Of a DNA stretch of 64,000 bases, positions 15,164-58,065 are shown piece by piece. Within the stretch, counting starts at the first letter, position 1, and each line of letters opens with the position of its first letter. The translations under genes were made by a program, and so were the position numbers. The DNA comes from Aquimarina latercula DSM 2041 (GTDB lineage: Bacteria; Bacteroidota; Bacteroidia; Flavobacteriales; Flavobacteriaceae), in the NCBI RefSeq assembly GCF_000430645.1, contig NZ_AUMK01000004.1, positions 62,001 to 126,000 of the forward strand. The letters are read 5' to 3'. A model generated the notes under the pieces. The model saw only the letters and a program-made list of their open reading frames with translations, ran no database searches and was not told the origin of the DNA.

Positions 15164-15232
15164 AACCATTTTAATACTTATTTAACAAAGCCTAAAAAAC
15201 CCTTATCTATAAAGGTCTCAACAACAAAACTC

Positions 15233-44296: not shown

Positions 44297-44713
44297 ATTG
44301 AGTTAAATTTGTGTTAGGCGCAAATTTATAAATTCAAACGAAAAATTTAATATGGTAAAACCGTATGCTATTTCGTTAACAATTAATAATTAAGATAAAA
44401 AATTGCATTTAAAAATAATTTGTTGCAACTTTGTTGCTTTAGTGATAATAATGGTTTCAAGAAGAATTAACAAAAACAAAAACCAGTACAAAAACACACA
44501 AAACTAAAATAATTAATCAAAATTAATTAACATTTAATTAACACTATTTAACTAAATTTTCCAAAGACAAGTACTTCTAAAGGTTAAAAACTGTTTAATT
44601 AACTAAAAATTATATTAAACAAAGTGCCACTTTTTCGAAAACATAGTAAAACAAAATAGCTTTATTAAATACTTTATTATCTAAAAAAGCTTATTAGTTA
44701 TCATATCTAACCA
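44297..44713. other. Subtilase/metal-locus divergent non-coding region
   Basis: A 417-bp very AT-rich stretch between divergent genes. It contains the 13-bp palindrome at 44425-44437 and several TTAATTAA-rich segments between 44517 and 44620. On the minus strand a TAAATTTG (-7 form) lies at 44321-44328 for the subtilase gene. I could not find a clear promoter toward the 44714 gene. Confidence 0.55.
44425..44437. promoter_or_regulatory. GCAAC-N3-GTTGC palindrome, copy 1
   Basis: GCAACTTTGTTGC is a perfect 5-bp-arm palindrome around TTT. It is one of four copies in the control regions of the 44-64 kb locus. It lies 276 bp before the small secreted-protein gene and 129 bp before the subtilase start, so its target is not certain. 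A Fur/Zur-type operator is inferred. Confidence 0.6.
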
Positions 44714-45025
44714 ATGAGGTTGAACTTTTATAAAAATATAATTTCTCTTTTTTTAGTTACAACTTTTCTGCTTTTAAGAGTTGTTAGTGCACACGCATTT
44801 TCACATTTTTCCGATGATACGCATCCAGATACAAATTGCGAATTATGTGAGATCATTACAACATCAAATCAGCTTACACCTTTTATAGGTGATACTACCG
44901 AAGAAATAGAACAAAAATCTACAGCAGATTATCAAGAACATAAAGTAGATTTTAGTTACGAAACATCTAAATATAGTATAACACTGCCCAAAAGTGTTTA
45001 CAACAAACCTCCTCCAACACTTTAA
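44714..45025 (+). CDS. Small exported protein with His/Cys cluster
   Basis: A 103-residue protein with a signal peptide (about 1-26, ending VVSA). The mature N-terminus has His27, His31, His37, Cys42 and Cys45 (HPDTNCELC), a potential metal site. The rest is polar, with GDTTEEIEQKSTADYQEHKVDFSYE and a proline-rich end (NKPPPTL). It resembles the short secreted proteins near outer-membrane metal receptors in Bacteroidetes and the DUF2946 type, but I cannot assign it firmly. It is the first gene after palindrome copy 1, followed by a 213-bp gap. Confidence 0.6.
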   Translation: MRLNFYKNIISLFLVTTFLLLRVVSAHAFSHFSDDTHPDTNCELCEIITTSNQLTPFIGDTTEEIEQKSTADYQEHKVDFSYETSKYSITLPKSVYNKPPPTL

Positions 45026-45238
45026 ATTAGAGTTAAAACACTTTATTTTTTACTTATTCTTTTACGATTATACAGTGATATATAAAATAACTCAACTTTT
45101 CCTGCTAGAAAACCTTATTTCAAATTTTTCTAATCTATCACAATTTCACTCATTATCAAGAAGGTTCTCTATCAGGTATAAAACCTCTCAATATTAAGAT
45201 TTACATCAAATAACATTATTAATAATTTAAAACTTACC

Positions 45239-45712
45239 ATGATTACTAAAAAAGAAATTGAAAATGCCCAAAAAATTTGGGGAGAAGGAGTTGTTCAAAT
45301 AGGTGCACTTCATACAGATAGATCAGCAAATGAAACTTATACGGAAAACTTCGTAAATGATTTGTATGATTTTGACAACAAAGAAGTATTATTTAAACCA
45401 ACTAAAGCTGCAATTGATCAGTTTAGAATTACTAAAGAAGGTGCGATTTCCTATTTTATTGGTGGTAATTCAAAATTTTCTGAAGATAAAGGTTTTGCTC
45501 TTCAACCTTGGACACAGGTTAGGTTTGAAAATGCAGCCTTAATATTAGAAGAAAATAGGGCGTTAGCCATGGGGAATTATTTTTTTACTGATACAAATGG
45601 ACAAGACACTAAAGTTGAATACACTTTTGGATATCGAAAAGATTCCAACGGAAAACTAAAAATAGATGTACATCATTCATCTTTACCATTTAGCATAGTA
45701 GAAAGTGTATGA
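45239..45712 (+). CDS. NTF2-like (CaMKII-association-type) cytoplasmic protein
   Basis: A 157-residue protein with an NTF2-like fold. ITKKEIENAQKIWGEGVVQIGAL forms the first helices, LFKPTKAAIDQFRITKEGAISYFIGGN the central part, and FALQPWTQVRFENAALILEENRALAMGNYFFTD with KVEYTFGYRKDSNGKLKI the strands, ending HHSSLPF. These features match the CaMKII association-domain subgroup. It has no signal peptide. Its stop overlaps the next gene by ATGA. It opens the closely packed run 45239-50499. The role is unknown. Confidence 0.68.
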   Translation: MITKKEIENAQKIWGEGVVQIGALHTDRSANETYTENFVNDLYDFDNKEVLFKPTKAAIDQFRITKEGAISYFIGGNSKFSEDKGFALQPWTQVRFENAALILEENRALAMGNYFFTDTNGQDTKVEYTFGYRKDSNGKLKIDVHHSSLPFSIVESV

Positions 45713-46245
45713 CTTTTAATAAACTAAAATCAGGTAATTCTCTGTTTTTGATTTGCCCAACGGACCATATAGAAGGTGTTTTAAGACAAACTTGTAGTAA
45801 TGAAGCATTTTTCTATACGGCCCTTGGGGCTAATTTTAGATGGGATATTGATACTCAAGAAAACCTTATTTCTGTAATTAAAAATCAAAACATTACTCAA
45901 GTTATTTTTATAACAAAAAACACAAATATTTTTTACAGAGAAGTACTTGAACCAGAAATCGAGCCCTTTTTCAACGCTAATAAAACCTTATTACAGCTTG
46001 ATAAAACGTTACCTAAACATTTCTTAAGTCAAAGTCATCCAATATTGAGAGTAATGCTTTTGGCCTCCAGACATTTACAAAAACAACGAAAATACATGTT
46101 AGACACTCCAATACTGGGAAAAGCTTTAAAACATCACAATGTTATTACCCAAAGTTTTGTCTACTATTCAAATAATCAAATTTTTTATCCTCCAAAAACA
46201 ATCGAAAATAAGGTTTTGTTATATGGTAAATTATCTCCTAACTAA
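45709..46245 (+). CDS. Unrecognised cytoplasmic protein coupled to the NTF2-like gene
   Basis: A 178-residue protein that I do not recognise with certainty. Its start overlaps the stop of the preceding gene (ATGA, 45709-45712), so translation is coupled. The first half alternates strands and helices (GNSLFLICPTDHIEGVLR, TQENLISVIKNQNITQVIFITKN) in a Rossmann-like way that recalls beta-carbonic anhydrase, but the usual zinc ligands are not all there. The second half is rich in basic and aromatic residues. As part of the locus it may have a metal-related role. This is speculation. Confidence 0.5.
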   Translation: MTFNKLKSGNSLFLICPTDHIEGVLRQTCSNEAFFYTALGANFRWDIDTQENLISVIKNQNITQVIFITKNTNIFYREVLEPEIEPFFNANKTLLQLDKTLPKHFLSQSHPILRVMLLASRHLQKQRKYMLDTPILGKALKHHNVITQSFVYYSNNQIFYPPKTIENKVLLYGKLSPN

Positions 46246-46304
46246 AAATTAGGTAGCCAATTGTACAAAATGAAAATTATCATAATAATTAAAATACTGT
46301 AATT

Positions 46305-46823
46305 ATGAAATTCTATCAAATATTACTTCTCGGATGTCTATTGCTATTTTCTACATCATTTAGCCTAACACATCCAATAAAGCTAACCTCATCATTAATT
46401 CAATCTTTTCCGGAAAGTAATATTTTAGGAGTAGAATGCAGAGTTTTTATTGATGATTTTACTTTTAGTATGAACGATACATTTACTAAAAATTTTAATG
46501 CATCAGACTTATCCGAAGAAGATATTGAAGGAATTGAGAATTATTTTAAAAAGTATTATAAAATAATCATTAATGATAAAATATACACCCTTAAATATAT
46601 TTCTTCAGAAGTTTTTGAAAAGCATAATGTTTTATCAATTAAGTTTTCCAAAAAAATTCCGGTGATAAAAGAGGGAGATCAAATTTGTATCGAAAACACA
46701 CTTTTTTTTCAAGAATTTGACTTTTTACAATCTAATAGGATGACTGTTCGTATACCTCCATTTATTTCAGAAGATTACTTCGAAGTTACATCACTAGACA
46801 AACCTATAACTCTTAATTTATAA
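46305..46823 (+). CDS. Exported DUF6702-like protein
   Basis: A 172-residue protein with a signal peptide (about 1-20, LLLGCLLLFSTSFS). The mature part starts HPIKLTSSLIQSFPESNILGVECRVFIDDFTFSM and consists of beta strands with KYYKIIINDKIYTLKYISSE. DUF6702 proteins (small exported beta proteins starting with His) are widespread in Bacteroidetes and often sit before HupE/UreJ genes, as here (13 bp). The His at the mature N-terminus suggests a metal ligand, not proven. Confidence 0.65.
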   Translation: MKFYQILLLGCLLLFSTSFSLTHPIKLTSSLIQSFPESNILGVECRVFIDDFTFSMNDTFTKNFNASDLSEEDIEGIENYFKKYYKIIINDKIYTLKYISSEVFEKHNVLSIKFSKKIPVIKEGDQICIENTLFFQEFDFLQSNRMTVRIPPFISEDYFEVTSLDKPITLNL

Positions 46824-46836
46824 TACCCTAATCCTA

Positions 46837-47424
46837 ATGGATAATTTAAGCTCTTTTTTTATTAATGGATGGCATCATATCGTAGATATTAATGCATACG
46901 ACCATTTATTATTTGTAATGACATTATGTGCTGCTTTTAAACTAGAACAATGGAAGCAAATATTAGTAATCATTACCGCTTTTACTATTGGGCATAGCGG
47001 AACTCTTATTCTAAGCGCCTTAGATATAATTCCGGCAAATTCCAAACTTATAGATATGCTCATTCCTTTTACCATAATGTTAACTGCATTAGCCAATATT
47101 ATCAATTACAATAAACACGGTAAATTTTCTGATACTAAAGTAAAATATAGCATTGCCTTAATTTTTGGGTTAATTCATGGATTAGCATTTGCCAGCAATT
47201 TTAAATTTATGCTATTTAGTGATAGCATAATTATGCCACTATTGGCATTTAATATTGGTATCGAGGTTGGACAGTTATTTATTGTACTCCTTTTTATGTT
47301 ATCCCTATGGATATATACTCAATTTATTAGGGGAGAACATTTAAAATGGAACCTGTTCATTTCGGGAGCTGGTTTTGGAATTGCTGCCACGATTTTATTA
47401 AACGCTTTTAATGATATACAATAA
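46837..47424 (+). CDS. HupE/UreJ-family membrane protein
   Basis: A 195-residue protein with six hydrophobic helices. Family motifs are GWHHIVDINAYDHLLF (about 11-26), TAFTIGHSGTL (about 49-59), FGLIHGLAFASNF (about 111-123) and FNIGIEVGQLF (about 137-147); the conserved His and Asp form a metal-binding set inside the membrane. HupE and UreJ transport or help deliver nickel or cobalt. In this locus zinc or another metal is possible. It follows the DUF6702 gene by 13 bp. Confidence 0.88.
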   Translation: MDNLSSFFINGWHHIVDINAYDHLLFVMTLCAAFKLEQWKQILVIITAFTIGHSGTLILSALDIIPANSKLIDMLIPFTIMLTALANIINYNKHGKFSDTKVKYSIALIFGLIHGLAFASNFKFMLFSDSIIMPLLAFNIGIEVGQLFIVLLFMLSLWIYTQFIRGEHLKWNLFISGAGFGIAATILLNAFNDIQ

Positions 47425-47452
47425 TAGACTATGTTAACAAAGGAGTTTTAAT

Positions 47453-48406
47453 ATGTTTAAACAAATAGCTATTTACTTAATTCTTTCATTTTTGTTTGGA
47501 TCTTGTGGGGCACAAGAAAAAAAAGAAGAATCTGAAGTTATTATTGATCGAAAAAAAATTGATGCAACTTTTAACAAAGATGTATCTAAGTTATTATTAG
47601 ATCATTTATACGTGGTTGTAGATAGCATTACTTATGAAAAATTAATAAAAAACAATAGCTGGAAAAGTAAATATGCCTCTATAGATATAGGATTACCAGA
47701 TTTTGCTCCCGCAGATCATAAAGTATCTACCTGTTATTTACGAGGACATCAACATTATATTGAAATCTTAAGTCCAAAAAATAGCTATAACGAACCTGTA
47801 GGAAAAAGTGGAATTGGTTTCTCTTTAAAAAACAATGACGAACATTTTCATTTGGGTGTTAAACCAAAATTAAAAACTACTAAAGACTCGCTTCTTTATG
47901 CTATGGAAAATGTTGAGATGCCTTTGGATGATCATAACCATACCTGGTTCAAGGCTTTTTACACACCAAGTCCTGGCACATCTTTACACACTTGGTATGG
48001 TTTTTATAACCCAGCTTTTTTAGATAACCTTCTAGGCAAAAGACATACCACATATTCACGAGAAGCATTTCTTGAATCTACGTATACTGATGAAAAACTT
48101 TTTAACGGGATTAAAGAAATTCATTTAAGCTGTATCCCAAATGATTATCGCCGCGTAACCCAAGAACTAAGGCATTTAGGTTGTAAGCTATTAGAAAAAA
48201 ACGGAAATACTCTAACCATAGCTAGCGGTGACATTACTATTAATATTCAACCCTCTAATCAGATCGAATACAGTCAAATTACCAAAATAATTTGTCGATT
48301 AAACGAAAAAGATAACAGCACGATTCAATTAGGTAATGTTACCATAACCAATCAAGGGAATGAATCTACATGGAATTTTGATAAACTTCATAAAAACAAT
48401 TTTTAG
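47453..48406 (+). CDS. DUF5829-like lipoprotein
   Basis: A 317-residue lipoprotein (lipobox FGSC, Cys18). The mature part has LLLDHLYVVVDSITYEKLI and IDIGLPDFAPADHKVSTCYLRGHQHYIEILSP, which is VOC-like. Later, WFKAFYTPSPGTSLHTWYGFYNPAFL and IKEIHLSCIPNDYRRVTQELRHLGCKLL follow. This fits DUF5829, a family of exported VOC-fold proteins. Several His and Asp could bind a metal or small ligand. It is in the tight run between HupE and a lipoprotein gene (28 and 34 bp), so it is likely part of the same operon. Confidence 0.65.
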   Translation: MFKQIAIYLILSFLFGSCGAQEKKEESEVIIDRKKIDATFNKDVSKLLLDHLYVVVDSITYEKLIKNNSWKSKYASIDIGLPDFAPADHKVSTCYLRGHQHYIEILSPKNSYNEPVGKSGIGFSLKNNDEHFHLGVKPKLKTTKDSLLYAMENVEMPLDDHNHTWFKAFYTPSPGTSLHTWYGFYNPAFLDNLLGKRHTTYSREAFLESTYTDEKLFNGIKEIHLSCIPNDYRRVTQELRHLGCKLLEKNGNTLTIASGDITINIQPSNQIEYSQITKIICRLNEKDNSTIQLGNVTITNQGNESTWNFDKLHKNNF

Positions 48407-48440
48407 AAAACACTGTAATATTATTTAAAATTAAAACAAA

Positions 48441-49268
48441 ATGAACAAAAAAACTCACTATCAAATTATTGTAACTCTTCTTTTATTTTTTGCTATTACA
48501 TCCTGTAAACAAGAAAAAAAGGCTCCAGAAACTACTGATGAGTTAGAAACAGAAATTACTGAAGAAGCCGAAGTAGTACAATCTAAAATTACCTTAGAGA
48601 AATTAGAAGGTTCGCCTGCATATAAAGACGCAGCACTTATTGTAGATACTTCTGATGAAATAGTCGCTAAAAAATCTGGAGAAATGGATTTCTATTTTAA
48701 CGTTGAAAATTATGAATTAGGTGCTCAAACTAAAGGTCCAAACGCACAAAAACTAGCAAATTCTGGGAAAGGACAACATATTCATTTCATCCTAAATAAT
48801 CAGCCCTACTCTGCACACTATGAACCAAATTTTAAAAAAGAAATACCTGATGGCATTCACCATTTAGTTGCCTTTTTAAGCCGTTCATTCCACGAATCAG
48901 TAAAGAATGAAAATTCTGTAGTTGTTCGTAAACTAGTAGTAGGAGAAAAACCTGAGGATAAATTAAACCTTAATATGGAGGCACCAACACTAATTTATAG
49001 CCGACCTAAAGGTGAATATACTGGTGACGGTACAAAGGAAGTATTATTGGATTTCTTTGTACTAAACACAAAACTTTCTAAAGAAGGAAATAAAGTTCGT
49101 GCAAAAATTAATGGCACAGAATTTACAATCACAGAATGGGTTCCTCACGTTATCAAAGGGCTTCCTATGGGAGAAATTACTATTCAGCTAGAATTAGTTG
49201 ATGAAGCTGGAAATGTAATTCCAGGGCCATTTAACAAAGTGACTCGTAAGATCACTTTAAAAGACTAA
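48441..49268 (+). CDS. Exported lipoprotein with His-rich strands
   Basis: A 275-residue lipoprotein (lipobox ITSC, Cys22). An acidic linker ([17 protein letters not shown]) follows, then beta strands with [43 protein letters not shown] and, in the C-terminal half, [16 protein letters not shown] and [22 protein letters not shown]. The His clusters in QHIHF and GIHHL may bind metal. Its closest neighbour is a COG0523 GTPase gene 13 bp later. The family is not recognised with confidence. Confidence 0.6.
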
Positions 49269-49281
49269 AAAAATAAAGTCA

Positions 49282-50499
49282 ATGAAAAAATTACCTGTAA
49301 CTGTATTGAGTGGCTTTCTTGGAGCAGGAAAGACAACGCTCTTAAATCATATTTTACATAACAAAGAAGGATTAAAAGTTGCTGTTATTGTAAATGACAT
49401 GAGTGAAATCAACATTGATGCACAGCTTGTAGAAAATGAAAACACCCTATCTAGAACCGAAGAAAAACTCGTTGAGATGTCTAATGGTTGTATTTGTTGT
49501 ACTCTAAGAGAAGATCTAATGGTAGAGGTAGAAAAATTAGCCAAAGAACAACGCTTTGATTATTTAATCATAGAAAGTACTGGGATTTCGGAACCTATCC
49601 CTGTAGCACAAACCTTTAGTTTTACCAGCGAAGATGGACAACTAGACTTAAGTAAGTTTAGCTATGTAGATACTATGGTCACTGTTGTAGATGGTTATAA
49701 TTTTCTGAGAGATTTTTCTAGCCCACAATATCTAACAGATAGAAACCTTACTAATATTGAGGGAGATGACCGTACTATTGTTAACCTATTAACTGATCAA
49801 GTAGAGTTTGCTAATGTTATTTTGCTAAATAAAGTAGACTTAATAACAGAATCAGAATTGAGGAATTTATATGATATTATTCATAAATTAAACCCAAACG
49901 CTCGCGTTATCCCTACTCAAAATTCTCAAGTATCAATACGTGAAGTAATTGATACAGGTTTGTTTGATTTTGAAGAAGCAGAAGCATCAGCAGGATGGAT
50001 ACAGGAACTCGAAAATGAGCACATCCCGGAAACCGAAGAATATGGGATTGGTTCTTTTGTTTATCGAAAATGTAAACCCTTTCATCCTGAACGTTTTTTA
50101 GAATTTGCCAAGGATCACTTTCCTTCAAATATTATTCGTAGTAAAGGATTATTTTGGCTTGCCTCTCGTCCCAATCAAGCTCTTATATGGGGTTCTGCAG
50201 GAGGTTCACTCAAAACAGATCCAGCTGGAGTTTGGTGGGCTTCGATGCCTTTTAGTGAACGAATCAGTTATGGCTCATTTTTAGATAATCAAAAGATGAT
50301 TGAAGCTGAGTGGGATCCTACATTTGGGGATCGTAAAATCGAACTCGTATTTATTGGTCAAAACATTGATGTTGATCTTGTAACTAAACAATTGGATGAT
50401 TGTTTGATCACAGAATCAGAACTTAACGAATGGAAAAAGGGAGTGTTTGTAGCAAACGATCATTGGCCAATTCCTAATTACGAAGGGTCATCTGTCTAA
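49282..50499 (+). CDS. COG0523 (CobW/ZigA-type) GTPase metallochaperone
   Basis: A 405-residue G3E GTPase. Walker A is GFLGAGKTT (11-19), the metal motif is GCICC (69-73), Walker B lies in YLIIESTG, and the base-recognition motif is LNKVD. The C-terminal domain from about 270 has [22 protein letters not shown], characteristic of the ZigA group, and includes a second His/Trp-rich part. Members are induced by zinc limitation and deliver zinc to chosen apoproteins. It ends the operon and a strong terminator follows. Confidence 0.92.
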
Positions 50500-50531
50500 T
50501 AGAGATAAAACCGAAAGAAGTGAAATAACAA

Positions 50532-50564
50532 TAAATCCGGTTAGCCTTTAGCTAACCGGATTTA
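50532..50564. terminator. Strong hairpin after the first COG0523 gene
   Basis: TAAATCCGGTTAGC at 50532-50545 pairs exactly with GCTAACCGGATTTA at 50551-50564, loop CTTTA. It lies between the convergent COG0523 and metallophosphoesterase genes and can end both transcripts. Confidence 0.85.
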
Positions 50565-50584
50565 CTAATAATATAATTAGAATT

Positions 50585-51499
50585 TTATACAACCATAGCA
50601 GTTCCGTCTGAAGTTTTATTTTTTTGGCTATCAAAATAAAAATCTATTCTACCTAAATACAAACCGTAACACCCAACCTGATTTACGAGCACATTTTTAT
50701 CTTTTCTATTTTTTACTACTGTTGGTTCTTTTAGAAAAGTATGCGTATGTCCACCTATAATTAGATCAATGTTTTCTGTAGCTGCAGCTAGGCTTAAATC
50801 ACTCACTTTATTTGGCTCGTTTTTATAATCATATCCTAAATGAGATAAGCATATAACCAAATCACACTTTTCTTCGTTTTTTAATACAGCACTCATGTCC
50901 TGAGCAATCTCTATTGGATTAAGATAGTTAGTCTCCTTATATAAATCTTTCATTACAAGTCCTTCTAACTCTATTCCTAAACCAAATATTCCAATCTTAA
51001 TAGAATCCTTTATTATTATTTTATAAGGCTTTACGAACGTATCCATAACTGTATTAGTAAAATCATAGTTAGCGGACACAAAATTAAATTTTGCATAAGG
51101 CAATTGTGCATGCAATCCCTCAATCCCATTATCAAAATCATGATTCCCTATAGTTACTACATCGTATTTAAGCATACTCATCAACTTAAATTCTAGCTCA
51201 CCTCCGTAAAAATTAAAATAAGGAGTTCCCTGAAAAATATCACCTGCGTCTAATAACAAAGTATTAGGGTTCTCTTTTCTTATATTTTCGATAATTGTAG
51301 CTCTTCGGGCCACTCCCCCTTTATTAGAATTTCTACCATCATTTGGCCCAAAAGGATCTATATGACTATGTACATCGTTTGTGTGTAAGATGGTTATCTT
51401 TTTCGTGTTACTCGCAGAAAAAGAAGATAAACCTACACCTCCAACTGTTAACAAGCCAGCCGTTAATGCAGAATGTTTTACAAATTCTCTTCGTTTCAT
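50585..51499 (-). CDS. Metallophosphoesterase, 5'-nucleotidase N-domain (Tat-type export)
   Basis: A 304-residue protein. KRREFVKHS with a hydrophobic stretch (to about 30) is a twin-arginine signal. The calcineurin-like phosphoesterase motifs are ILHTNDVHSH (about 37-46), DAGDIFQG (about 84-91), GNHDFDNG (about 117-124) and GGHTHTF (about 240-246). These give a two-metal site, normally zinc or manganese. It lacks the C-terminal 5'-nucleotidase domain, which is encoded by the gene just before it (13 bp). The two products likely act together in the periplasm on nucleotides. Confidence 0.88.
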   Translation of the reverse strand: MKRREFVKHSALTAGLLTVGGVGLSSFSASNTKKITILHTNDVHSHIDPFGPNDGRNSNKGGVARRATIIENIRKENPNTLLLDAGDIFQGTPYFNFYGGELEFKLMSMLKYDVVTIGNHDFDNGIEGLHAQLPYAKFNFVSANYDFTNTVMDTFVKPYKIIIKDSIKIGIFGLGIELEGLVMKDLYKETNYLNPIEIAQDMSAVLKNEEKCDLVICLSHLGYDYKNEPNKVSDLSLAAATENIDLIIGGHTHTFLKEPTVVKNRKDKNVLVNQVGCYGLYLGRIDFYFDSQKNKTSDGTAMVV

Positions 51500-51511
51500 C
51501 GCTTTATTTAA

Positions 51512-52267
51512 TTAGTTGGTTTGTAAAAATCTATCGTCAATTTTCGGTGCAATTGTATCTACTTTTTTAAAGTAGTCAATCATTGCATTCCTAATTTTAT
51601 AATTCAACTTATGAGCCTTGCCCGCTTTTTTAAAAAAATACATCTCACTACCACCATGATACAGATAATCATTAGTTGCTACGAAATAAACCTTGTCTTC
51701 GTTAATTTCCATATCATTAATCAAAGCTTTCACGATATTAAAATCTTCATCAACGGTCAATTTTAATCCAGAAATAGGATGTGCTTTTCTAGATTTTTGT
51801 AAATAGGAAATCAATTCTTTAATATGGGCGCCATTCATTTCCACAACTATGATACTATTCTCAAATGGCATCACCTGATAGGCAGTACGTGCGGTAACAT
51901 TACCTTTTGGAATTGGTGCTCGTATTCCTCCTTGATTTAATAATACCATATCAATGGCACTTTTAGTTTTTGAAATAAAAAAAGGATTGGCTTGTTCTAA
52001 TACGATATCGGCCATTAAATTACCAATAGCTGTATTAAGGTTTCCATCTCTTTTAGAGTAAGTTTCTGGAGCATACGCCAAGGTACTATCCAAAGTCTTA
52101 TTTACATGTTCTTTATAAGGTTTTATAAAAGCCTCCACATCTGAATTATCCAGAGTAGTATCATTTATTTCAATTCTCACTCCTTCTACTTTTATAAGAT
52201 GTTCTTTTTTCTTACAAGATGAGAAAACCAATATGAATGTAAGCAATAAGAAACTCTTATCAATCAT
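51512..52267 (-). CDS. 5'-nucleotidase C-domain lipoprotein
   Basis: A lipoprotein of 251 residues from ATG 52267 (an ATG at 52306 would add 13 and spoil the signal). The lipobox is FSSC. The body is the UshA-type C-domain, with NTAIGNLMADIV, LLNQGGIRAPIPKG (the substrate-binding NxGGIR) and TARTAYQVMPFENSI, ending YFVATNDYLYHGGSEMYFF. It precedes the metallophosphoesterase N-domain gene by 12 bp, so the enzyme is split over two genes in domain order C then N. The nucleotide substrate is inferred from the family. Confidence 0.85.
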   Translation of the reverse strand: MIDKSFLLLTFILVFSSCKKKEHLIKVEGVRIEINDTTLDNSDVEAFIKPYKEHVNKTLDSTLAYAPETYSKRDGNLNTAIGNLMADIVLEQANPFFISKTKSAIDMVLLNQGGIRAPIPKGNVTARTAYQVMPFENSIIVVEMNGAHIKELISYLQKSRKAHPISGLKLTVDEDFNIVKALINDMEINEDKVYFVATNDYLYHGGSEMYFFKKAGKAHKLNYKIRNAMIDYFKKVDTIAPKIDDRFLQTN

Positions 52268-52365
52268 ATTTTTTCGTAGGTAATTATGATCTATTATTTT
52301 ATCCATGTATTATAAAACTTGATTAATCCTTTCTCTAGCAGCTAATGTATAATTTTAATTCTATT

Positions 52366-52800
52366 TTACTGTATCAATCTAGCGGTTGCTTCTTTCAATA
52401 TATAATTACAGTGATCAACATCATCCGCATTTAATTCTAGTATTCCCGTTACTTCTATTATTTGGTCTGTTTTATAACCAGGTTTATTTTTAAAAATCAC
52501 TTCTACAATAGTTTCAGGACCAGCTCCCCCGCAGAAAAAACAAGATGACATTGGATTTCTAGAAACCATAAAAAACTCTTCTTTATAAGAAAAATCTAAA
52601 AAATAACCCCTGATACTAATTTTGGATCCTTCATAAGACTTTATTTTAGGTCCAAATGTTGGTTTCAAAAAATAATCATCATAATGTACGTTATAAATAT
52701 CTTGAAAACTAACATCTGTAAAATCATCCCATAACAATTTTTGCTGAGCCATAAGATGAAGTGGGATACTGAAGACCAGAAATAAAAATACTTTACGCAT
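52366..52800 (-). CDS. Exported DUF3299-like protein of the ABC operon
   Basis: A 144-residue protein with a signal peptide (about 1-19, ending LHLMAQ). The mature part has an OB-fold-like look: KISIRGYFLDFSYKEEFFMVSRNPMSSCFFCGGAGPETIVEV, then KTDQIIEVTGILELNADDVDHCNYIL. The CFFCGGAGP loop with two Cys is reminiscent of the DUF3299 proteins found beside MacB-like zinc ABC systems of Gamma-proteobacteria. It overlaps the permease gene by 8 bp. A metal-binding role is inferred. Confidence 0.62.
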   Translation of the reverse strand: MRKVFLFLVFSIPLHLMAQQKLLWDDFTDVSFQDIYNVHYDDYFLKPTFGPKIKSYEGSKISIRGYFLDFSYKEEFFMVSRNPMSSCFFCGGAGPETIVEVIFKNKPGYKTDQIIEVTGILELNADDVDHCNYILKEATARLIQ

Positions 52801-54004
52801 CGGCTAAAGTTTTAGAAATATTTAATTTAAATAAAGAATAAGAAGCAAAAATTGTAGCAAGTATTGTGGTAAAAAGTACTAGAGTGAATATAAAAAACTC
52901 TTCTGTATCAGGTATACTTATCTCCAATTGATACTGATATACCTCTGAAGCTAAGGTTGCAAATAGCAAAACACTTCCTCTACCTAAAATCCATCCTAAA
53001 ATGCATCCAATGATGGATAAAGAAAGTGCCTCGTAAAAAACTAATTTCAGCAATTGAAAGTTCGTTGCTCCATATGTTCTTAATAAAGCTAATTCATGTT
53101 TTCTTTCTCTAACAGTCTTTATTAGGTTAGTAAAAATACTTAACCCTGCTACAAGTAGTATTGCTATGGCAATTCCATTGATTGCCTGAAAACCAACACC
53201 TAAAAATCTCAATAATCGGTCAATCTCTAATTTTGGAAGTGCTGCCTGTAATGAGCTATTTTTATTGATAGATCTAGAAAGTTGCAAGGCCCCAATAGGG
53301 TTTCTGAAGTTTAATAATAAAGCTGTAATTTCTTTATGCTCTTCCTCGTGCTCTGTATGTTCTTCACCTTCTATGTGTTCTTCATCTGATGGATGCTCAT
53401 GAACTTCCCAAATACTTTCAAGATTTGTTATAATAAGATCATCTACCACTGTTCCTGTAGACACTAAAATTCCACTAACTACAAAAGGTTTATCATCGTG
53501 AATATCAATTTCATTTTGTATCAACCCATGAGAACTAACAAAAGTACTTCCAACGCTAAGGTTTAAGTTACTAGCTACTTTACTACCCAATACCGCTTCA
53601 AAATTTTTCGTGTTTAGTTTCCCTTCTTTACAGGTAGCATTATATTTAAGTAAATACTGACTAGAAGTTCCTAAAATCTTATAACTTTTATAATTATCAC
53701 CATAAGAAACAGGTATAGCTTCCTTTATCATAGGATTTTTACTTATCCTTAAAGCTTCATCTAGAGATATATTTCCAGTTGGGTTATCTATGTGAAAGAT
53801 AGTCGATAATACAAGTTGCAAAGGACTTCCTTTTGCGCCAACTACCATATCAAATGGTTTACTATTTTTCTCTAGATGATGATTAAGCTGTTTGCTTATT
53901 TGTAAAACAAAAGTAGCTAACAAAATACTTAACGTTAATAGCAAAACGCTAAGCATTGTATTAAGAGGTTTTGAAATGAGATTTTTAAACGCTAAGTATA
54001 ACAA
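52793..54004 (-). CDS. FtsX/MacB-like ABC permease with His/Glu-rich loop
   Basis: A 403-residue permease. TM1 lies at about 12-35 (LNTMLSVLLLTLSILLATFV), a large periplasmic domain at about 40-260, and three helices at the C-terminus (about 275-297, 320-350 and 365-395), the FtsX/MacB topology. In the periplasmic domain residues 202-223 hold six His (202, 204, 210, 216, 219, 223) among many Glu, as in EHIEGEEHTEHEEEHKE. This loop should bind zinc or a similar metal. It is 2 bp from the ATPase gene. Import or efflux direction is unknown. Confidence 0.85.
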   Translation of the reverse strand: MLYLAFKNLISKPLNTMLSVLLLTLSILLATFVLQISKQLNHHLEKNSKPFDMVVGAKGSPLQLVLSTIFHIDNPTGNISLDEALRISKNPMIKEAIPVSYGDNYKSYKILGTSSQYLLKYNATCKEGKLNTKNFEAVLGSKVASNLNLSVGSTFVSSHGLIQNEIDIHDDKPFVVSGILVSTGTVVDDLIITNLESIWEVHEHPSDEEHIEGEEHTEHEEEHKEITALLLNFRNPIGALQLSRSINKNSSLQAALPKLEIDRLLRFLGVGFQAINGIAIAILLVAGLSIFTNLIKTVRERKHELALLRTYGATNFQLLKLVFYEALSLSIIGCILGWILGRGSVLLFATLASEVYQYQLEISIPDTEEFFIFTLVLFTTILATIFASYSLFKLNISKTLADA

Positions 54005-54006
54005 AT

Positions 54007-54639
54007 TTAGAGGATTATATGTTTATCAAAATGTGGTCTAACTCTTTGATCATGGGTGATAATGACCAAATTACTTTTGCAAATCTGAGCCTCTTTTTTT
54101 AATAAGGAGATGACCCTCTCACAATTCTTATCATCTAAATTAGAAGTAGGTTCATCTGCTAAGATTACCTTTGGTTTATGTATAATCCCAAGAGCAATGG
54201 AAAGTCGTTGTCTTTGACCCTCGCTTAATTCTTGAACTTTCTTATTCCTAACATCAATTAAATCCAATTTCTCTATTAATCCTATTCTCCTTTCTTGATC
54301 TATTGTTTTTTTAGACAGTTTCTCACGAATTTTAATGTTCTCTAATAAACTTAAAGACTTAATAAAATATGCTCTTTGAAAAATTATTCCTATATGCTTA
54401 CCTCTGAAATTATTTAATTGATTTCTTGTAAGTTGTTGCACACAAGTATTACCAATAAATACATTTCCTTTTTTTGGAACTAAAAGACCAGCCATAATAT
54501 GTAACAACGTAGTTTTACCAATACCTGAGTCTCCCAAAATCAAAGCATTTTGTTCAAATGATAAATCTATGTCTGGAAAATAAAAAGTATTAGTTTTTGT
54601 GTTCTTATATGCAAACCTTAACGATGTCGTTCGGATCAT
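54007..54639 (-). CDS. LolD/MacB-type ABC ATPase
   Basis: A 210-residue ATPase. Walker A is GDSGIGKTTLL (about 36-46), the signature is LSEGQRQRLSIA (about 138-149), Walker B is VILADEPTSNLDD (about 158-170) and the H-loop is VIITHDQRV. It is of the small LolD/MacB group that pairs with FtsX-like permeases. The gene starts the leftward operon. Its start is 38 bp from the palindrome at 54677-54689, which also faces the MerC/folE operon. Confidence 0.92.
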   Translation of the reverse strand: MIRTTSLRFAYKNTKTNTFYFPDIDLSFEQNALILGDSGIGKTTLLHIMAGLLVPKKGNVFIGNTCVQQLTRNQLNNFRGKHIGIIFQRAYFIKSLSLLENIKIREKLSKKTIDQERRIGLIEKLDLIDVRNKKVQELSEGQRQRLSIALGIIHKPKVILADEPTSNLDDKNCERVISLLKKEAQICKSNLVIITHDQRVRPHFDKHIIL

Positions 54640-54676
54640 AAAAAAGTTTTGTCAAAAATAAATAAATATTATTAAC

Positions 54677-54689
54677 GCAACAAAGTTGC
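54677..54689. promoter_or_regulatory. GCAAC-N3-GTTGC palindrome, copy 2, between divergent operons
   Basis: GCAACAAAGTTGC (with outer C/G it becomes 54676-54690) is a perfect palindrome in the 103-bp gap between the leftward ABC operon and the rightward MerC/folE operon. Its right half overlaps the probable -33 element of the rightward promoter, so a bound repressor would block it. It could serve both directions. Confidence 0.7.
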
Positions 54690-54714
54690 GTTTGTAAATT
54701 ATACACTATCTTTG
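54685..54714 (+). promoter_or_regulatory. Promoter of the MerC/folE operon
   Basis: GTTG at 54685-54688 as -33 element and TATCTTTG at 54707-54714 as -7 element are 18 bp apart, near the Bacteroidetes consensus. Transcription would begin near 54721, 22 bp before the TTG start of the MerC-like gene. Confidence 0.55.
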
Positions 54715-54742
54715 CCCTCATTAAAATATATACACTTTTACT

Positions 54743-55147
54743 TTGAATATTTTACAAATACGCAGCAACTCCGATACCTTAGGTATTATAGCCAGTAGCT
54801 TATGTTTAGCACACTGCTTAGCAACTCCTTTTTTATTTCTAGCCAATACCGGCTCCACCTTATTTCAAGATGGACATTCTTTATGGTGGAAATCACTGGA
54901 TATTATTTTTTTAGGGCTTTCATTTATCGCAATTCGTCAAACCACTAAAACCACCACAAACCATAGAATAAAATATGCTTTTTGGTCAGCTTGGACGATG
55001 TTGTTATTTATTATAATGAATGAAAAACTATCAATTATACCGCTTCCTGAAGAAGTTATTTACGTAGTATCTTTAATATTAGTAGGATTACATTTTTATA
55101 ATAAGAAGTACTGCCGTTGTAAAGATGAAAAATGCTGCACAAATTAA
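54743..55147 (+). CDS. MerC-domain membrane protein with TTG start
   Basis: A 134-residue protein with four hydrophobic helices. The MerC-type feature is SLCLAHCLATPFLFL (about 18-32), with the Cys pair on either side of AH. The C-terminus is Cys-rich (CRCKDEKCC). MerC-like proteins move or bind mercury or other thiophilic metals. The only usable start is TTG at 54743: a stop lies at 54722 in frame and no upstream ATG exists. It is 6 bp before folE in the same operon. Confidence 0.8.
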   Translation: MNILQIRSNSDTLGIIASSLCLAHCLATPFLFLANTGSTLFQDGHSLWWKSLDIIFLGLSFIAIRQTTKTTTNHRIKYAFWSAWTMLLFIIMNEKLSIIPLPEEVIYVVSLILVGLHFYNKKYCRCKDEKCCTN

Positions 55148-55153
55148 TGCATA

Positions 55154-55831
55154 ATGAGCACTAAGAATCAAAACGAAATAGAATTAATTGGAGATGCGCA
55201 TATTTCCAATTCAACAGAAACTCCTTTACGGGCAAATGCTTTTGACACATCTGATGAAGACAAAATTAAAAACATACAACATCATTTTGCTGAAATCATG
55301 AAAGAGTTAGGACTTGATCTAACCGATGACAGTCTCTCTGGAACTCCTTACAGGTTTGCGAAAATGTATGTAAAAGAACTTTTTTACGGTCTAAATCCAA
55401 AGAACCGCCCTAAGACTTCCATTTTTGAAAATAAATATGGATATCAGAAAATGTTGGTTGAGCAAAACATCAATATTGATTCTTCTTGTGAACATCACTT
55501 TTTACCAATTGTTGGTACCGCACATGTGGGATACATTCCTAAAGAAAAGGTAATCGGGCTATCAAAAATCAATAGATTGGTAGATTATTATGCCCATCGT
55601 CCCCAAGTACAAGAAAGATTATGCTTACAAATTTTAAAAGACTTACAAGAAACTCTAGGAACTGAGGATGTGATTGTAGTAATACAGGCTAAACATCTTT
55701 GTGTTTCCTCAAGAGGAATTAAAGATAAAAGCAGTTTTACGACTACCATCGAATATAGAGGAAAGTTTATTGAACCGGATACTAGAAAAGAATTCTTTGA
55801 TGTTATAAACAAACCTTTTGAAAGTATTTAA
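55154..55831 (+). CDS. folE: GTP cyclohydrolase I (type IA)
   Basis: A 225-residue GTP cyclohydrolase I. The catalytic zinc ligands are Cys112 and His115 (SCEHHF, 111-116) and Cys183 (HLCVSSRG). The remaining motifs (GTPYRFAKMYV, GLSKINRLVDYYAHRPQVQERL) are complete. It makes 7,8-dihydroneopterin triphosphate for folate. Its location next to COG0523 GTPases and MerC-like genes, away from folate genes, suggests a second copy used under metal stress; this is a known arrangement in Zur regulons of cyanobacteria. It is 6 bp after the MerC gene. Confidence 0.96.
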   Translation: MSTKNQNEIELIGDAHISNSTETPLRANAFDTSDEDKIKNIQHHFAEIMKELGLDLTDDSLSGTPYRFAKMYVKELFYGLNPKNRPKTSIFENKYGYQKMLVEQNINIDSSCEHHFLPIVGTAHVGYIPKEKVIGLSKINRLVDYYAHRPQVQERLCLQILKDLQETLGTEDVIVVIQAKHLCVSSRGIKDKSSFTTTIEYRGKFIEPDTRKEFFDVINKPFESI

Positions 55832-55861
55832 ATGTTAGAAATCATTAAGTAAAAACCAATA

Positions 55862-56818
55862 ATGAGATATAAACTAACATTACTTTTGCTTTTCACTATT
55901 TTTAAGTGTTTTGTTTCTTTTTCCCAAAATGGGAAAATTATAGAAAAGGAAAGGTTAATTTTAAGTGATTCTATAATTACCAAAATTCACAAGGCTGATT
56001 CAGCCATGATTAAAGCACTTAAAAACATTGAATTTTTTCGAATTACATATCTATCAGACTCTCTTAAAGTTAAAGGTTTTATCGCTAAACCAGTTCAGAA
56101 AGGTAGTTTCCCTTGTATCATTTCAAATCGCGGAGGTACAGGTGAATTCGGGAAATGGAATGAGACTGGAGTGGGTTTCTTTTTAGGAAAACTTGCTAGT
56201 TGGGGATATGTAGTCGTGGCAAGTCAATACCGAGGTAATGATGGTGGTGAAGGACAAGAAGAAAGAGGCGGAAAGGACGTAAATGATGTACTAAGTCTTG
56301 TTAACACTTTAGGAGAAATTGATAATGCCGATACATCGAGAATTGGAATAGAAGGTGCTAGCAGAGGAGGTATGATGACATATCTTTCACTTAAAAAAAC
56401 ATGTCAATTCAAAGCTGCCGTTGTCCTTGCGGGTGCTGCTAATGCTTTCGAACATCTCGTACATAGACCCGATTTTGAAGAGAATGTATATGCCAAGGTT
56501 ATTCCTAATTATTATGAAAATAAAGAAAAAGAACTCAAAGCACGGTCGGCAGTATTTTGGGCTGATAAAATGTGTAAAACAACTCCAATGTTAATAATGC
56601 AAGGTAGCGCTGACTGGCGTGTTCCAGCAACAGAATCACTAGAGTTATTGAACAAGTTGTATGAATATAAACATCCAGTTCGTTATATTTTATTTGAAGG
56701 AGCTGATCACCGAATATCAGAATTTAGAAAAGAGTTTTTTGCCCAAACCAAAAGCTTTTTTGATTTTTATGTAAAAGAGCTTAATGATTTACCAAATATG
56801 GAGTTACATGGCAGATAA
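55862..56818 (+). CDS. Exported alpha/beta hydrolase (S9 peptidase-like)
   Basis: A 318-residue protein with a signal peptide (about 1-20, ending CFVSFSQ). The fold has LKVKGFIAKPVQKGSFPCIISNRGG, the nucleophile elbow GASRGG (GxSxG, about 166-171), the Asp of MQGSADWRVP and His of EGADHRI. This is a full Ser-Asp-His triad. Its closest groups are dienelactone hydrolase/S9 peptidase-like proteins. It lies 30 bp after folE and 140 bp before the second COG0523 gene. The substrate is unknown; cleavage of a metallophore ester is one speculative option. Confidence 0.8.
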   Translation: MRYKLTLLLLFTIFKCFVSFSQNGKIIEKERLILSDSIITKIHKADSAMIKALKNIEFFRITYLSDSLKVKGFIAKPVQKGSFPCIISNRGGTGEFGKWNETGVGFFLGKLASWGYVVVASQYRGNDGGEGQEERGGKDVNDVLSLVNTLGEIDNADTSRIGIEGASRGGMMTYLSLKKTCQFKAAVVLAGAANAFEHLVHRPDFEENVYAKVIPNYYENKEKELKARSAVFWADKMCKTTPMLIMQGSADWRVPATESLELLNKLYEYKHPVRYILFEGADHRISEFRKEFFAQTKSFFDFYVKELNDLPNMELHGR

Positions 56819-56958
56819 CCTTCTTTTATTTAAAAGATGGATTAGTATTAAAAGTGTTGTATTGTTATTCGGAAATATAATCCCCGTCTAATCCAGTGGT
56901 ATTTTACTCCTTTATTAATCTTCTTTAACCATATAAAATTTTACTTTTTTATTAAAAC

Positions 56959-57858
56959 ATGGAAGCTATAATTACAATTGTTGGTTTTTTGGGAGCTGGA
57001 AAAACGACACTTTTGAAGCATTTGGTAACAAGCTATATCAAGAATAATTGGAACCCTTTTATTGTTCTAAATGATTATGAAAATGCAAATCTCGATGCAC
57101 TTCAGCTTATCGATAAAATTGATCCTAAATGGATAAGAGCCCTTACAGGTAGTTGTATTTGCTGCAGTGGTATTAATGAATTGAGAGATCACGTAAACCG
57201 AATTCCAGTACGTACTAATGGAATTACTTTAATCGAAGCCAATGGCACTTCTGATGCATGTGCGCTAATGGAGTTCTTAGGTGTTGGACTTAACGATAGA
57301 TTCTTACCCCCTATCCAGATATCCGTTGTTGATGTAAAAAATTGGCAAAAAAGAGGAGAATATGATGAGCTAGAAGCAAATCAAGTACAAGTGTCTTCAT
57401 TGATTATCCTAACTCATCTTGAAAAAACAACTAAAAATAGACAAACTCTTGTTAGGAAAGAATTAAAAGCACTCAACCGATTCGCTAAAATTATGACAAT
57501 GGATGAAATTGATGCCACACTGCTTCCTGAATTTTTGCCTTCTAAAAACATCGCTCAAAAACTTGATCATCAAAAAGCACATTGGTCTTCTTGCTCCACA
57601 GATCTGCCAGATCTGCCCAACTTAGATTGCATATATACTATCTGCAATGCATTACCAAAAAGTATACTAAGGGTAAAAGGTTGCACAAAAATTGGAGACG
57701 AAAAAAAGTATACTTATTTTGAACGTAATCCAGATGGTCAAGTTTTTATTCGACCATTTAACGGCATACCTATCACAGGTCCAAAACTTCTTACTGTAGG
57801 ACCGGGAAGTGAATCTTCATTATTAGAAAAAGTTATCCAAACTAGTCTTAAAAAATAA
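56959..57858 (+). CDS. Second COG0523 GTPase, short form
   Basis: A 299-residue G3E GTPase. Walker A is GFLGAGKTT (9-17). The metal motif is SCICC (about 65-69), with the usual first Gly changed to Ser but all three Cys kept. The C-terminal domain (about 220-299) is shorter than in the 49282 gene (299 against 405 residues), and the base-recognition motif is weak (ILTHLE). It has no His-rich tail. It may be a second metallochaperone with a different client. It ends the rightward operon. Confidence 0.85.
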   Translation: MEAIITIVGFLGAGKTTLLKHLVTSYIKNNWNPFIVLNDYENANLDALQLIDKIDPKWIRALTGSCICCSGINELRDHVNRIPVRTNGITLIEANGTSDACALMEFLGVGLNDRFLPPIQISVVDVKNWQKRGEYDELEANQVQVSSLIILTHLEKTTKNRQTLVRKELKALNRFAKIMTMDEIDATLLPEFLPSKNIAQKLDHQKAHWSSCSTDLPDLPNLDCIYTICNALPKSILRVKGCTKIGDEKKYTYFERNPDGQVFIRPFNGIPITGPKLLTVGPGSESSLLEKVIQTSLKK

Positions 57859-58014
57859 AACTAAGACCCTAGTAAAATAAAAAAGAGTATCGCAGTAAAT
57901 AGACAATATGCTCTACATATTCTTTATAAATATACCAATCTATTTCCAAAAATGAATCAAATAATATTTGTGCTAATACCACAGAATTTTAAAATCCATT
58001 AACATAATATTAAC

Positions 58015-58027
58015 GCAACAGTGTTGC
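58015..58027. promoter_or_regulatory. GCAAC-N3-GTTGC palindrome, copy 3
   Basis: GCAACAGTGTTGC is a perfect-arm palindrome around AGT. Its right arm contains GTTG at 58023-58026, the -33 element of the promoter described at 58023-58053. It is 38 bp from copy 4. Confidence 0.7.
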
Positions 58028-58053
58028 AAAAACAAATATTATAATTAAGTTTG
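58023..58053 (+). promoter_or_regulatory. Promoter of the ABC/TonB-receptor operon
   Basis: GTTG (58023-58026), 19 bp, then TAAGTTTG (58046-58053) matches the Bacteroidetes promoter. Palindrome copy 3 covers the -33 element and copy 4 begins at the last base of the -7 element. A bound repressor at either site would block transcription. The start would lie near 58060. Confidence 0.7.
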
Positions 58054-58065
58054 CAACATAGTTGC
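58053..58065. promoter_or_regulatory. GCAAC-N3-GTTGC palindrome, copy 4
   Basis: GCAACATAGTTGC is a perfect-arm palindrome around ATA. It overlaps the final G of the -7 element and covers the expected transcription start. With copy 3 it forms a double operator. Confidence 0.7.

What the first reader, a model, noticed from the sequence alone, without database searches (positions are those of the whole stretch)
44425..58065. Four copies of one 13-bp palindrome tie together four operons of a metal locus
GCAAC-N3-GTTGC occurs at 44425-44437, 54677-54689, 58015-58027 and 58053-58065, all in non-coding control regions of the 44-64 kb block. I did not find it in control regions elsewhere in the window on reading. 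A Fur-family gene is 1.8 kb before the first copy. Together with folE and COG0523 genes this points to a Zur-type regulon with a Flavobacterium-specific operator. The metal and regulator are inferred.
Basis: partly seen in the sequence, partly recalled or inferred. Interest (0 to 1): 0.85.

Follow-up and report, generated by a model that had tools for sequence, protein, structure and literature searches.

The report
Zinc-type regulator's operator in Aquimarina
Four copies of a short DNA palindrome in this marine bacterium's metal locus look like the docking sites of a zinc-sensing repressor that controls zinc-saving genes and, unusually, protein-digesting enzymes that appear to sit on the cell surface.

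Summary
GCAAC-N3-GTTGC occurs at the four stated places, all outside genes, and only six times in the 6.2-Mb Aquimarina genome. It is the core of a 7-1-7 palindrome, TGCAACA-N-TGTTGCA, the layout of Fur-family operators. Comparative evidence ties it to a Fur-family clade that includes the 42568 protein; many members in other genera carry it in their own promoters.

Zinc is the likely metal: the operons encode a ZigA-type COG0523 GTPase, an iota-type carbonic anhydrase and FolE; relatives add PhoX and CysRS.

At the metal operons one arm supplies the TTG of the -33 promoter element. At 54677 one palindrome serves both divergent promoters; two operators 38 bp apart bracket the 58-kb promoter. 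This is steric-repressor geometry.

The sign of control there is open.

Binding and metal are inferred. The motif is not Flavobacterium-specific and marks three control regions, not four operons.

The parts
44425..44437 (.). Operator copy 1 (GCAACTTTGTTGC), 129 bp upstream of the subtilase gene 43028-44296 (minus strand) and 277 bp before the 44714 gene; distal geometry
   Evidence: same slot in 22 of 22 orthologous promoters with at most 1 mismatch (11 exact)
44321..44328 (-). -7 promoter element (TAAATTTG) of the subtilase, 109 bp from the operator start
   Evidence: TAnnTTTG at 109-111 bp in 21 of 22 orthologues
43028..44296 (-). Subtilase with I9 propeptide (sub422); lipoprotein-like signal judged by eye
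   Evidence: Peptidase_S8 115.2 bits, Inhibitor_I9 34.7 bits
42568..42954 (+). Fur-family regulator, candidate Zur-like reader of the palindrome
   Evidence: FUR 31.5 bits, cut-off 23.1; clade; invariant NKTT-YR helix
54677..54689 (.). Operator copy 2 (GCAACAAAGTTGC): its two arms supply the TTG of the -33 element of both divergent promoters
54686..54714 (+). Predicted promoter TTG-N18-TATCTTTG of the merC-folE-S9-cobW genes
54653..54680 (-). Predicted promoter TTG-N17-TATTTTTG of the ABC transporter genes reading left
58015..58027 (.). Operator copy 3 (GCAACAGTGTTGC), overlapping the -33 element
58024..58053 (+). Predicted promoter TTG-N19-TAAGTTTG between operator copies 3 and 4
58053..58065 (.). 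Operator copy 4 (GCAACATAGTTGC), starting at the last base of the -7 element; 38 bp from copy 3
   Evidence: 37-39 bp tandem spacing seen in relatives
45239..45712 (+). Iota-type (metal-independent) carbonic anhydrase
   Evidence: NF047901 E 1.2e-39 (135.8 bits, below the curated cut-off of 350); PDB 7c5v E 2.6e-35, 7c5x E 1.3e-89
45709..46245 (+). Uncharacterised gene of the same operon (I first took it for DUF1826; no Pfam family matched)
   Evidence: 0 families; in six relatives (L081, L082, L085, L090, L092, L093) a separate promoter-overlapping site stands before its operon
46837..47424 (+). HupE/UreJ-type membrane protein
   Evidence: PF13795 155 bits
49282..50499 (+). COG0523 GTPase of ZigA type
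   Evidence: NF038288 563.7 bits (cut-off 600)
52793..54639 (-). ABC transporter permease and ATPase genes (LolCDE/MacB-like)
54743..55147 (+). MerC-like membrane protein
   Evidence: PF03203 67.9 bits
55154..55831 (+). GTP cyclohydrolase I (FolE), one of four in this genome
56959..57858 (+). Second COG0523-family GTPase
   Evidence: PF02492 82 bits
58095..62912 (+). ABC ATPase, TonB-dependent receptor of the siderophore-receptor family, ABC-2 type permease
   Evidence: (TIGR01783 281 bits, cut-off 223.5)

Best explanation
The palindrome is the operator (consensus TTAATGCAACA-N-TGTTGCATTAA, a 7-1-7 inverted repeat) of a Zur-like, zinc-responsive Fur-family repressor, most likely the protein encoded at 42568. 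Loaded with zinc, a dimer would bind the palindrome. At the metal operons one arm of the palindrome is the -33 promoter element, so binding would shut RNA polymerase out; zinc starvation would release the ABC transporters, the TonB receptor, MerC, FolE and COG0523 GTPases. At two subtilase genes the same operator stands at a fixed distance upstream of the promoter, where it cannot occlude RNA polymerase directly; there the regulator more likely acts from afar, by activation or anti-activation. Shown: the sites, their conservation, geometry and gene neighbours, and a regulator clade many of whose members carry the site in their own promoters. Inferred: that 42568 binds, that the metal is zinc, that the -33/-7 elements are the promoters used, and the sign of control.
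For: Sites. Genus: 260 sites against 55 reversed-control matches in 66 genomes, more sites than control in 58, fewer in 3, equal in 5. Of 75 sites in the regions read (69 from 15 relatives, 6 own), 59 lie outside ORFs of 200 aa or more; 28.7% of that sequence is outside (P 5e-19 if sites were independent, which related genomes are not). Geometry: 17 of 59 such sites have an exact TAnnTTTG 17-21 bp from the arm's TTG; shuffled flanks give a mean of 0.9 and at most 5 in 300; 1 of 16 coding sites has it. Regulator: of 26 nearest Fur-like genes scored in other genera, 15 have an exact site in their own promoter and 17 one with up to 1 mismatch. In the tree 17 of 18 rows of the sister clade have the site, and 21 of 33 rows of the joint clade (support 98/92), against 5 of the other 25 rows. 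The recognition helix NKTT-YR is invariant in 21 of 21 aligned members; this genome's five other paralogues differ. Aquimarina genomes with an orthologue of at least 58% identity average 4.8 sites (40 genomes), those without 2.6 (26 genomes); all four genomes with no site lack the orthologue. Zinc: ZigA type and iota carbonic anhydrase, FolE, and in relatives PhoX, CysRS and FolE with promoter-overlapping sites. COG0523, FolE2 and CysS paralogues are named as predicted Zur targets in PMC2770081 (passages).
Against: No binding, expression or metal data exist. In Aquimarina the regulator's own promoter mostly lacks the site: 0 of 27 scored loci exact, one (L202, 62% identity) with 1 mismatch; two further 61%-identity orthologues (L145, L168) do have exact sites. 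26 of 66 Aquimarina genomes lack a close orthologue, yet 22 of them have at least one match, and one of these, G169, keeps an exact site before its window-type subtilase; so other Fur-like proteins must read the motif there. Five rows outside the clade also have a site in their promoters, two of them exact (L035, L105). The protein is remote from solved Zur proteins (best E 1.1e-5) and far below NCBI's Zur cut-off (25.2 of 167 bits). The TonB receptor falls in the siderophore-receptor family, so iron or another metal is possible. Neither znuA nor ribosomal-protein genes were met among the neighbours identified. The carbonic-anhydrase-to-ZigA operon of this genome shows no clear promoter at the 44425 site.
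Confidence: 0.75

Rival explanations
1. At the subtilases the distal site is an activator site: the metal-loaded regulator switches this proteolysis on when zinc is plentiful, the opposite of the metal operons.
For: The operator starts 109-111 bp before the -7 element in 21 of 22 window-type subtilase promoters, and 117-121 bp before it in 21 of 30 of the second type, with no promoter of 17-21 bp spacing at the operator in any of 13 rows. PMC5472717 (passages) states that Fur-activated genes carry the box about 100-200 bp upstream of the start, and that S. coelicolor Zur activates zitB, there from a box just upstream of the -35.
Against: Zinc-sparing logic would favour making a zinc-free protease in starvation, i.e. 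derepression. The transcription start is not mapped; a second conserved element near the promoter suggests another activator. Nine of 30 second-type promoters could not be measured (no site or no exact -7 element).
Confidence: 0.45
2. At the subtilases the regulator represses from a distance or blocks another activator, so that serine proteases without zinc are made in zinc starvation in place of zinc proteases, or to free zinc from proteins.
For: Same operator as the zinc-sparing genes (iota carbonic anhydrase; PhoX in a relative). Conserved second element between operator and -7 in both subtilase types.
Against: The position is unusual for a repressor; I saw no second palindrome in these promoters that could be a looping partner, apart from the separate site of the divergent operon in seven loci.
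Confidence: 0.4
3. The palindrome is read by another Fur paralogue (L008, L009, L010, L012 type) or responds to another metal such as copper, nickel, manganese or iron.
For: Site C1:1204232 heads a DUF6660-RND efflux operon that contains paralogue L010. The same DUF6660 arrangement, 26 bp from the site, recurs in four loci of other genera (L215, L216, L221, L224) and in one congener (L127). In three loci (L226, L231, L232) the site lies beside genes with 34-36% identity to an L050-type Fur.
Against: Those paralogues have other recognition helices, and this genome's C7 paralogue cluster has no exact site. The zinc-sparing targets point to zinc.
Confidence: 0.15
4. The site before the second subtilase (sub405) is not an operator but the tip of an RNA or DNA hairpin, for instance a terminator of the upstream gene.
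For: Inverted repeat of up to 24-bp arms whose bases covary: 13 of 24 pairs changed on both sides, 40 such cells against a shuffled mean of 15.6, 0 of 500 shuffles (27 of 30 loci aligned, related rows).
Against: GCAA...TTGC is invariant in all 27 while the outer arms vary or decay; in this genome the arms are degraded but the core is exact. Palindromes can also be corrected by template switching (recalled). The window-type subtilase sites have no such arms.
Confidence: 0.15
5. Chance palindromes.
For: The reversed control gives three exact matches genome-wide.
Against: Clustering, conservation of position and promoter geometry in relatives.
Confidence: 0.01

Closest known systems
Zur regulons of Proteobacteria, Firmicutes and Actinobacteria (E. 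coli, B. subtilis, S. coelicolor)
   Same: Fur-family regulator, dyad operator at promoters, COG0523 and GTP cyclohydrolase targets, zinc-independent substitutes (PMC2770081, PMC6103462: passages)
   Different: Operator TGCAACA-N-TGTTGCA is unlike the boxes in the passages seen (actinobacterial taaTGaNAANNNTTNtCANta in PMC5472717; TRWNAYRWTATAWYRTNWCA in PMC6103462). The E. coli Glu111 ligand position appears to hold a cysteine, C98, counting from the CxxC motif. Neighbours include an iota carbonic anhydrase, PhoX and subtilases
Distal-site activation by Fur (Neisseria, Helicobacter, Salmonella) and activation by Zur (S. coelicolor zitB)
   Same: Box about 100-200 bp upstream of the start in the Fur cases (PMC5472717 passages)
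   Different: Here the target is a predicted secreted serine protease and the sign of control is unknown; the zitB box is proximal
V. cholerae Zur-controlled cell-wall hydrolase (PMC6381278, title and start of abstract in a listing)
   Same: A hydrolase placed under the zinc-starvation regulator
   Different: Cell-wall hydrolase, not a subtilase; a different phylum
P. gingivalis PgFur (PMC6613475, start of abstract in a listing)
   Same: Fur-family regulator of the Bacteroidota
   Different: Linked to virulence factors; its relation to this palindrome was not examined

Membership tests
Zur (zinc uptake regulator, Fur family) | Fur-family sequence | tested here: met
   Pfam FUR 31.5 bits, over the cut-off 23.1; profile A3 best matches are metal-uptake/Zur chains 3mwm E 1.7e-10, 2o03 E 2.7e-9, and E. 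coli Zur 4mtd E 2.4e-7, with Fur chains between them
Zur (zinc uptake regulator, Fur family) | Structural zinc site of two CxxC pairs | tested here: met
   C90-x2-C93 and C124-x2-C127, invariant in 21 of 21 clade members; ligand roles from PMC4219657 (one passage)
Zur (zinc uptake regulator, Fur family) | Regulatory site His77-Cys88-His96-Glu111 of E. coli Zur | tested here: inconclusive
   H58 (invariant) and C72 (20 of 21) fit His77 and Cys88; H83, H85 or H87 could be His96; the Glu111 position holds C98. Correspondence by counting from the CxxC motif, partly with the E. coli sequence recalled; the structure model was too poor to check
Zur (zinc uptake regulator, Fur family) | Curated NCBIfam Zur equivalog score | tested here: not met
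   NF008646 25.2 bits, cut-off 167; a model of one named type, so a remote Zur need not reach it
Zur (zinc uptake regulator, Fur family) | Dyad operator in promoters of zinc-linked genes | tested here: met
Zur (zinc uptake regulator, Fur family) | Zinc-dependent DNA binding and repression | not testable with these tools
   Needs protein and expression data
Zur regulon | znuABC or ribosomal-protein paralogues behind the box | tested here: inconclusive
   Not met among the neighbours identified at this genome's six sites and in the regions read from 15 relatives; several neighbours stay unidentified and these families were not searched for
ZigA-type COG0523 GTPase (49282) | NCBIfam NF038288 cut-off | tested here: not met
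   563.7 bits against 600; hence 'ZigA type', not ZigA
Iota-class carbonic anhydrase (45239) | Homology over the whole catalytic domain to solved iota enzymes | tested here: met
   Residues 2-151 or 2-152 match 7c5v E 2.6e-35 and 7c5x E 1.3e-89; NF047901 is below its curated cut-off

The most novel reading that the evidence does not exclude
A Zur-like regulator of the Bacteroidota uses one palindrome in two geometries: promoter-overlapping (repression) for zinc uptake and zinc-sparing enzymes, and at a fixed distal position for subtilases, so that extracellular proteolysis is wired directly and oppositely (metal-activated) to zinc status.
Probability: 0.35. Interest if true: 0.75.

Novelty: new variant of a known kind. 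Interest (0 to 1): 0.6.

Why it matters
None of the listings of my ten paper searches showed a paper on a Zur box in the Bacteroidota, a major phylum of the sea and the gut. A concrete operator, its likely regulator clade and a promoter geometry would make the zinc regulon of these bacteria predictable from sequence. The link to subtilases and to non-zinc enzymes (iota carbonic anhydrase, PhoX) would connect zinc supply to how marine particle degraders use protein and phosphate.

Tried and rejected
Chance was rejected. Genome-wide scanning at 1 mismatch was useless (45 against 34 for the control). A second conserved element in the subtilase promoters (TACGG-TTTT-N-CCGTA-like) was sought genome-wide together with a -7 element: 6 forward matches against control 11, 0 reverse against 6; two of the six are the two subtilase promoters themselves. 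By that test it is not a wider regulon. An AlphaFold model of 42568 from 24 sequences of 83-94% identity was poor (pLDDT 61) and was not used. Subtilase paralogues of about 50% identity served as a negative control: 8 of 8 (L269-L276) have no site (3 or more mismatches). Of the other ten scored genes of that call two have an exact site (L282, L287), two have 1 mismatch (one each in L277, L284) and six have 2-4; L279, L280, L281 and L285 gave no scored gene and were dropped. In one search three of 29 family loci (L027, L046, L051) and two of 29 genus loci (L186, L194) gave no ORF under the filter and were dropped; those 29 family loci are the best-scoring of 88 genomes with a match. In one search three of 30 loci (L249 with unresolved start, L253, L258) have no site. 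The tree lacks paralogue L012. The regions cover the sites listed, whose list was cut: 6 of the 8 sites of G164 and none of the genomes after it. (PMC3022926, passages) mentions Zur and subtilisins in one Corynebacterium genome, without linking them in the passages seen.
Full report
1. Observation. The whole genome (6,245,252 bases) has six, against three for the reversed pattern; the other two lie at C3:157476 and C1:1204232. None of 2,000,000 random placements of six sites put four within 13.64 kb. A weight matrix from 53 intergenic sites of 14 other Aquimarina genomes scores the four at 27.6, 27.4, 26.1 and 20.5; the next place in the window scores 5.7. Named relatives show that the organism is an Aquimarina (82-93% identity of the Fur-like protein in 23 loci), family Flavobacteriaceae.

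2. The palindrome is larger than 13 bp. Regions around the sites listed for 15 congeners were read (66 regions, 69 sites; the list was cut, so 6 of 8 sites of G164 and no later genome), plus this genome's six sites: 75 in all. Over the 59 that lie outside ORFs of 200 aa or more (this genome and 14 congeners; both sites of G158 are coding) the consensus is TTAATGCAACA-N-TGTTGCATTAA, a 7-1-7 dyad with AT-rich arms; the 16 coding sites do not show these flanks. Across 66 genomes of the genus there are 260 exact sites against 55 control matches; 58 genomes have more sites than control, 3 fewer, 5 equal. The 59 of 75 compare with 28.7% of that sequence being outside such ORFs (P 5e-19 under independence, which related genomes do not have). 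TGCAAC-N3-GTTGCA occurs in 83 of 299 family genomes (21 have a control match) and 111 of 295 class genomes (14 have a control match); control tallies were counted by eye, the reversed control differs in dinucleotides, and contexts of the class hits were not read.

3. Two geometries. At the metal genes the TTG of one arm is the -33 element of a flavobacterial promoter (consensus TTG ... TAnnTTTG, recalled) with the -7 element 17-21 bp on. An exact -7 is found for 17 of 59 intergenic sites, against 0.9 on average (at most 5 in 300) with shuffled flanks, and for 1 of 16 coding sites. At 54677 one palindrome supplies the -33 of both divergent promoters, towards merC-folE and towards the ABC genes; the same holds in L109, L122, L133, L137, L147 and L165. 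At 58 kb one operator holds the -33 and the next starts at the last base of the -7 element, 38 bp on. Close pairs spaced 37-39 bp recur in the listings: L119, L121, L148, L028, L033, L036, L038, G138, G437 and G574; I did not search for pairs systematically. This is how a steric repressor would be placed.

4. The subtilases. The first copy (44425) lies 129 bp upstream of a subtilase with I9 propeptide, read leftward. In 22 of 22 orthologues (window plus 21 of 23 named loci; L084 lacks the gene and L098 has a fragment) a site with at most 1 mismatch stands 141-146 bp before the start codon, 11 of them exact. In L086 and L087 the subtilase is the only nearby gene facing the site; in L102 the next divergent ORF starts 557 bp away (ORFs of 60 aa or more). 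In seven loci (L081, L082, L083, L085, L090, L092, L093) a second, separate site serves the divergent operon, exact in six and with 1 mismatch in L083. The subtilase site stands 109-111 bp before the -7 element in 21 of 22. The copy at C3:157476 is upstream of another subtilase, sub405. Of 30 sub405 genes, one per genome, 19 have an exact site and 27 one with at most 2 mismatches; in 21 of 30 an exact -7 element follows at 117-121 bp. Eight of eight paralogues of about 50% identity have no site. A larger subtilase with a T9SS sorting domain has the site 146-147 bp upstream in three genomes (L149, L157, L161); in L161 a TAnnTTTG stands 16 bp from the arm's TTG, so its geometry is unclear. For the first two types no promoter of 17-21 bp spacing is seen at the operator in 13 of 13 rows. 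PMC5472717 (passages) says Fur-activated genes carry their box about 100-200 bp upstream of the start. I therefore rate distal activation slightly above distal repression. The sub405 site also sits in a long inverted repeat with covarying arms, which I cannot explain.

5. The regulator. The genome has six Fur-family genes. The 42568 protein belongs to a clade (support 98/92, 33 rows, some identical) in which 21 of 33 rows have the palindrome in their own promoter at up to 1 mismatch; in the sister subclade 17 of 18 do; outside the clade 5 of 25 do, two of them exact. Among nearest Fur-like genes in other genera 15 of 26 scored have an exact site in the promoter; in five of the 30 family loci with the site it lies between such a gene and a divergent merC (L203, L204, L205, L212, L230). 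The recognition helix NKTT-YR is invariant in 21 of 21 aligned members and differs in this genome's five other paralogues. Aquimarina genomes with an orthologue of at least 58% identity (40 of 66) average 4.8 sites (control 1.0), those without (26 of 66) 2.6 (control 0.6), P 4e-5 without correction for relatedness. Against: in the Aquimarina orthologues scored the gene's own promoter lacks an exact site (0 of 27; L202 has 1 mismatch), though two of 61% identity have one (L145, L168); and 22 of the 26 genomes without a close orthologue still have at least one match, so other Fur-like proteins probably share the motif.

6. The metal. The operons behind the sites hold a ZigA-type GTPase (563.7 bits, cut-off 600), an iota-type carbonic anhydrase (PDB 7c5v E 2.6e-35, 7c5x E 1.3e-89; metal independence is the NCBIfam name, and recalled), FolE (one of four in the genome), MerC, transporters and a TonB receptor. 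The link of the carbonic-anhydrase-to-ZigA genes to the 44425 site is by position only (277 bp before the first gene, no clear promoter); in six relatives that operon has its own promoter-overlapping site. In relatives, sites overlap the predicted promoters of PhoX (L136), CysRS (L154) and FolE (L119), and a LCIB-type carbonic anhydrase has the site 67 bp upstream (L104, near-consensus -7 only). That PhoX and subtilases do without zinc is recalled. COG0523, FolE2 and CysS paralogues are predicted Zur targets elsewhere (PMC2770081, passages). Zinc is thus the best guess. The TonB receptor's siderophore-type score (281 bits, cut-off 223.5) leaves other metals open.

7. Verdict. A real operator, most likely of a Zur-like regulator, with the motif enriched through the family and class. 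The regulon type is known; the operator sequence, the target set and the distal subtilase sites are the new part. Ten searches of the held library listed no paper that I recognised as describing a Zur box in this phylum; listings were capped and most subscription papers are not held.

Noticed in passing
L171:4001-4347 (G000 C1:1204232): Exact palindrome 25-26 bp before a DUF6660 gene that heads an RND efflux operon with its own Fur paralogue (L010); the same arrangement occurs in four loci of other genera (L215, L216, L221, L224) and one congener (L127).
   Followed up: partly
upstream regions of L233-L262; own genome L170 near 4001: The sub405 site lies in an inverted repeat of up to 24-bp arms that covary across species; its role (hairpin, terminator, extra dimers) is unknown.
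   Followed up: partly
window 44351-44365 (minus strand) and sub405 promoters: A second conserved dyad, TACGG-TTTT-N-CCGTA-like, lies between operator and -7 element in both subtilase types; possibly an activator site.
   Followed up: partly
L171 about 10450-10498; L173 about 10618-10676 and 15156-15213: The identical string ATGCACTTCCGTTGCAC stands between a Fur-paralogue gene and the next gene three times in this genome.
   Followed up: no
window 55154-55831: This genome carries four folE genes; whether the other three have regulatory sites of their own was not looked at.
   Followed up: no
L277 (G160 C1:4178394-4184198) and G156 C21:66087-70617: The sub405 subtilase is present as three tandem copies in two relatives; in G160 the copies have degraded sites (1-3 mismatches).
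   Followed up: no
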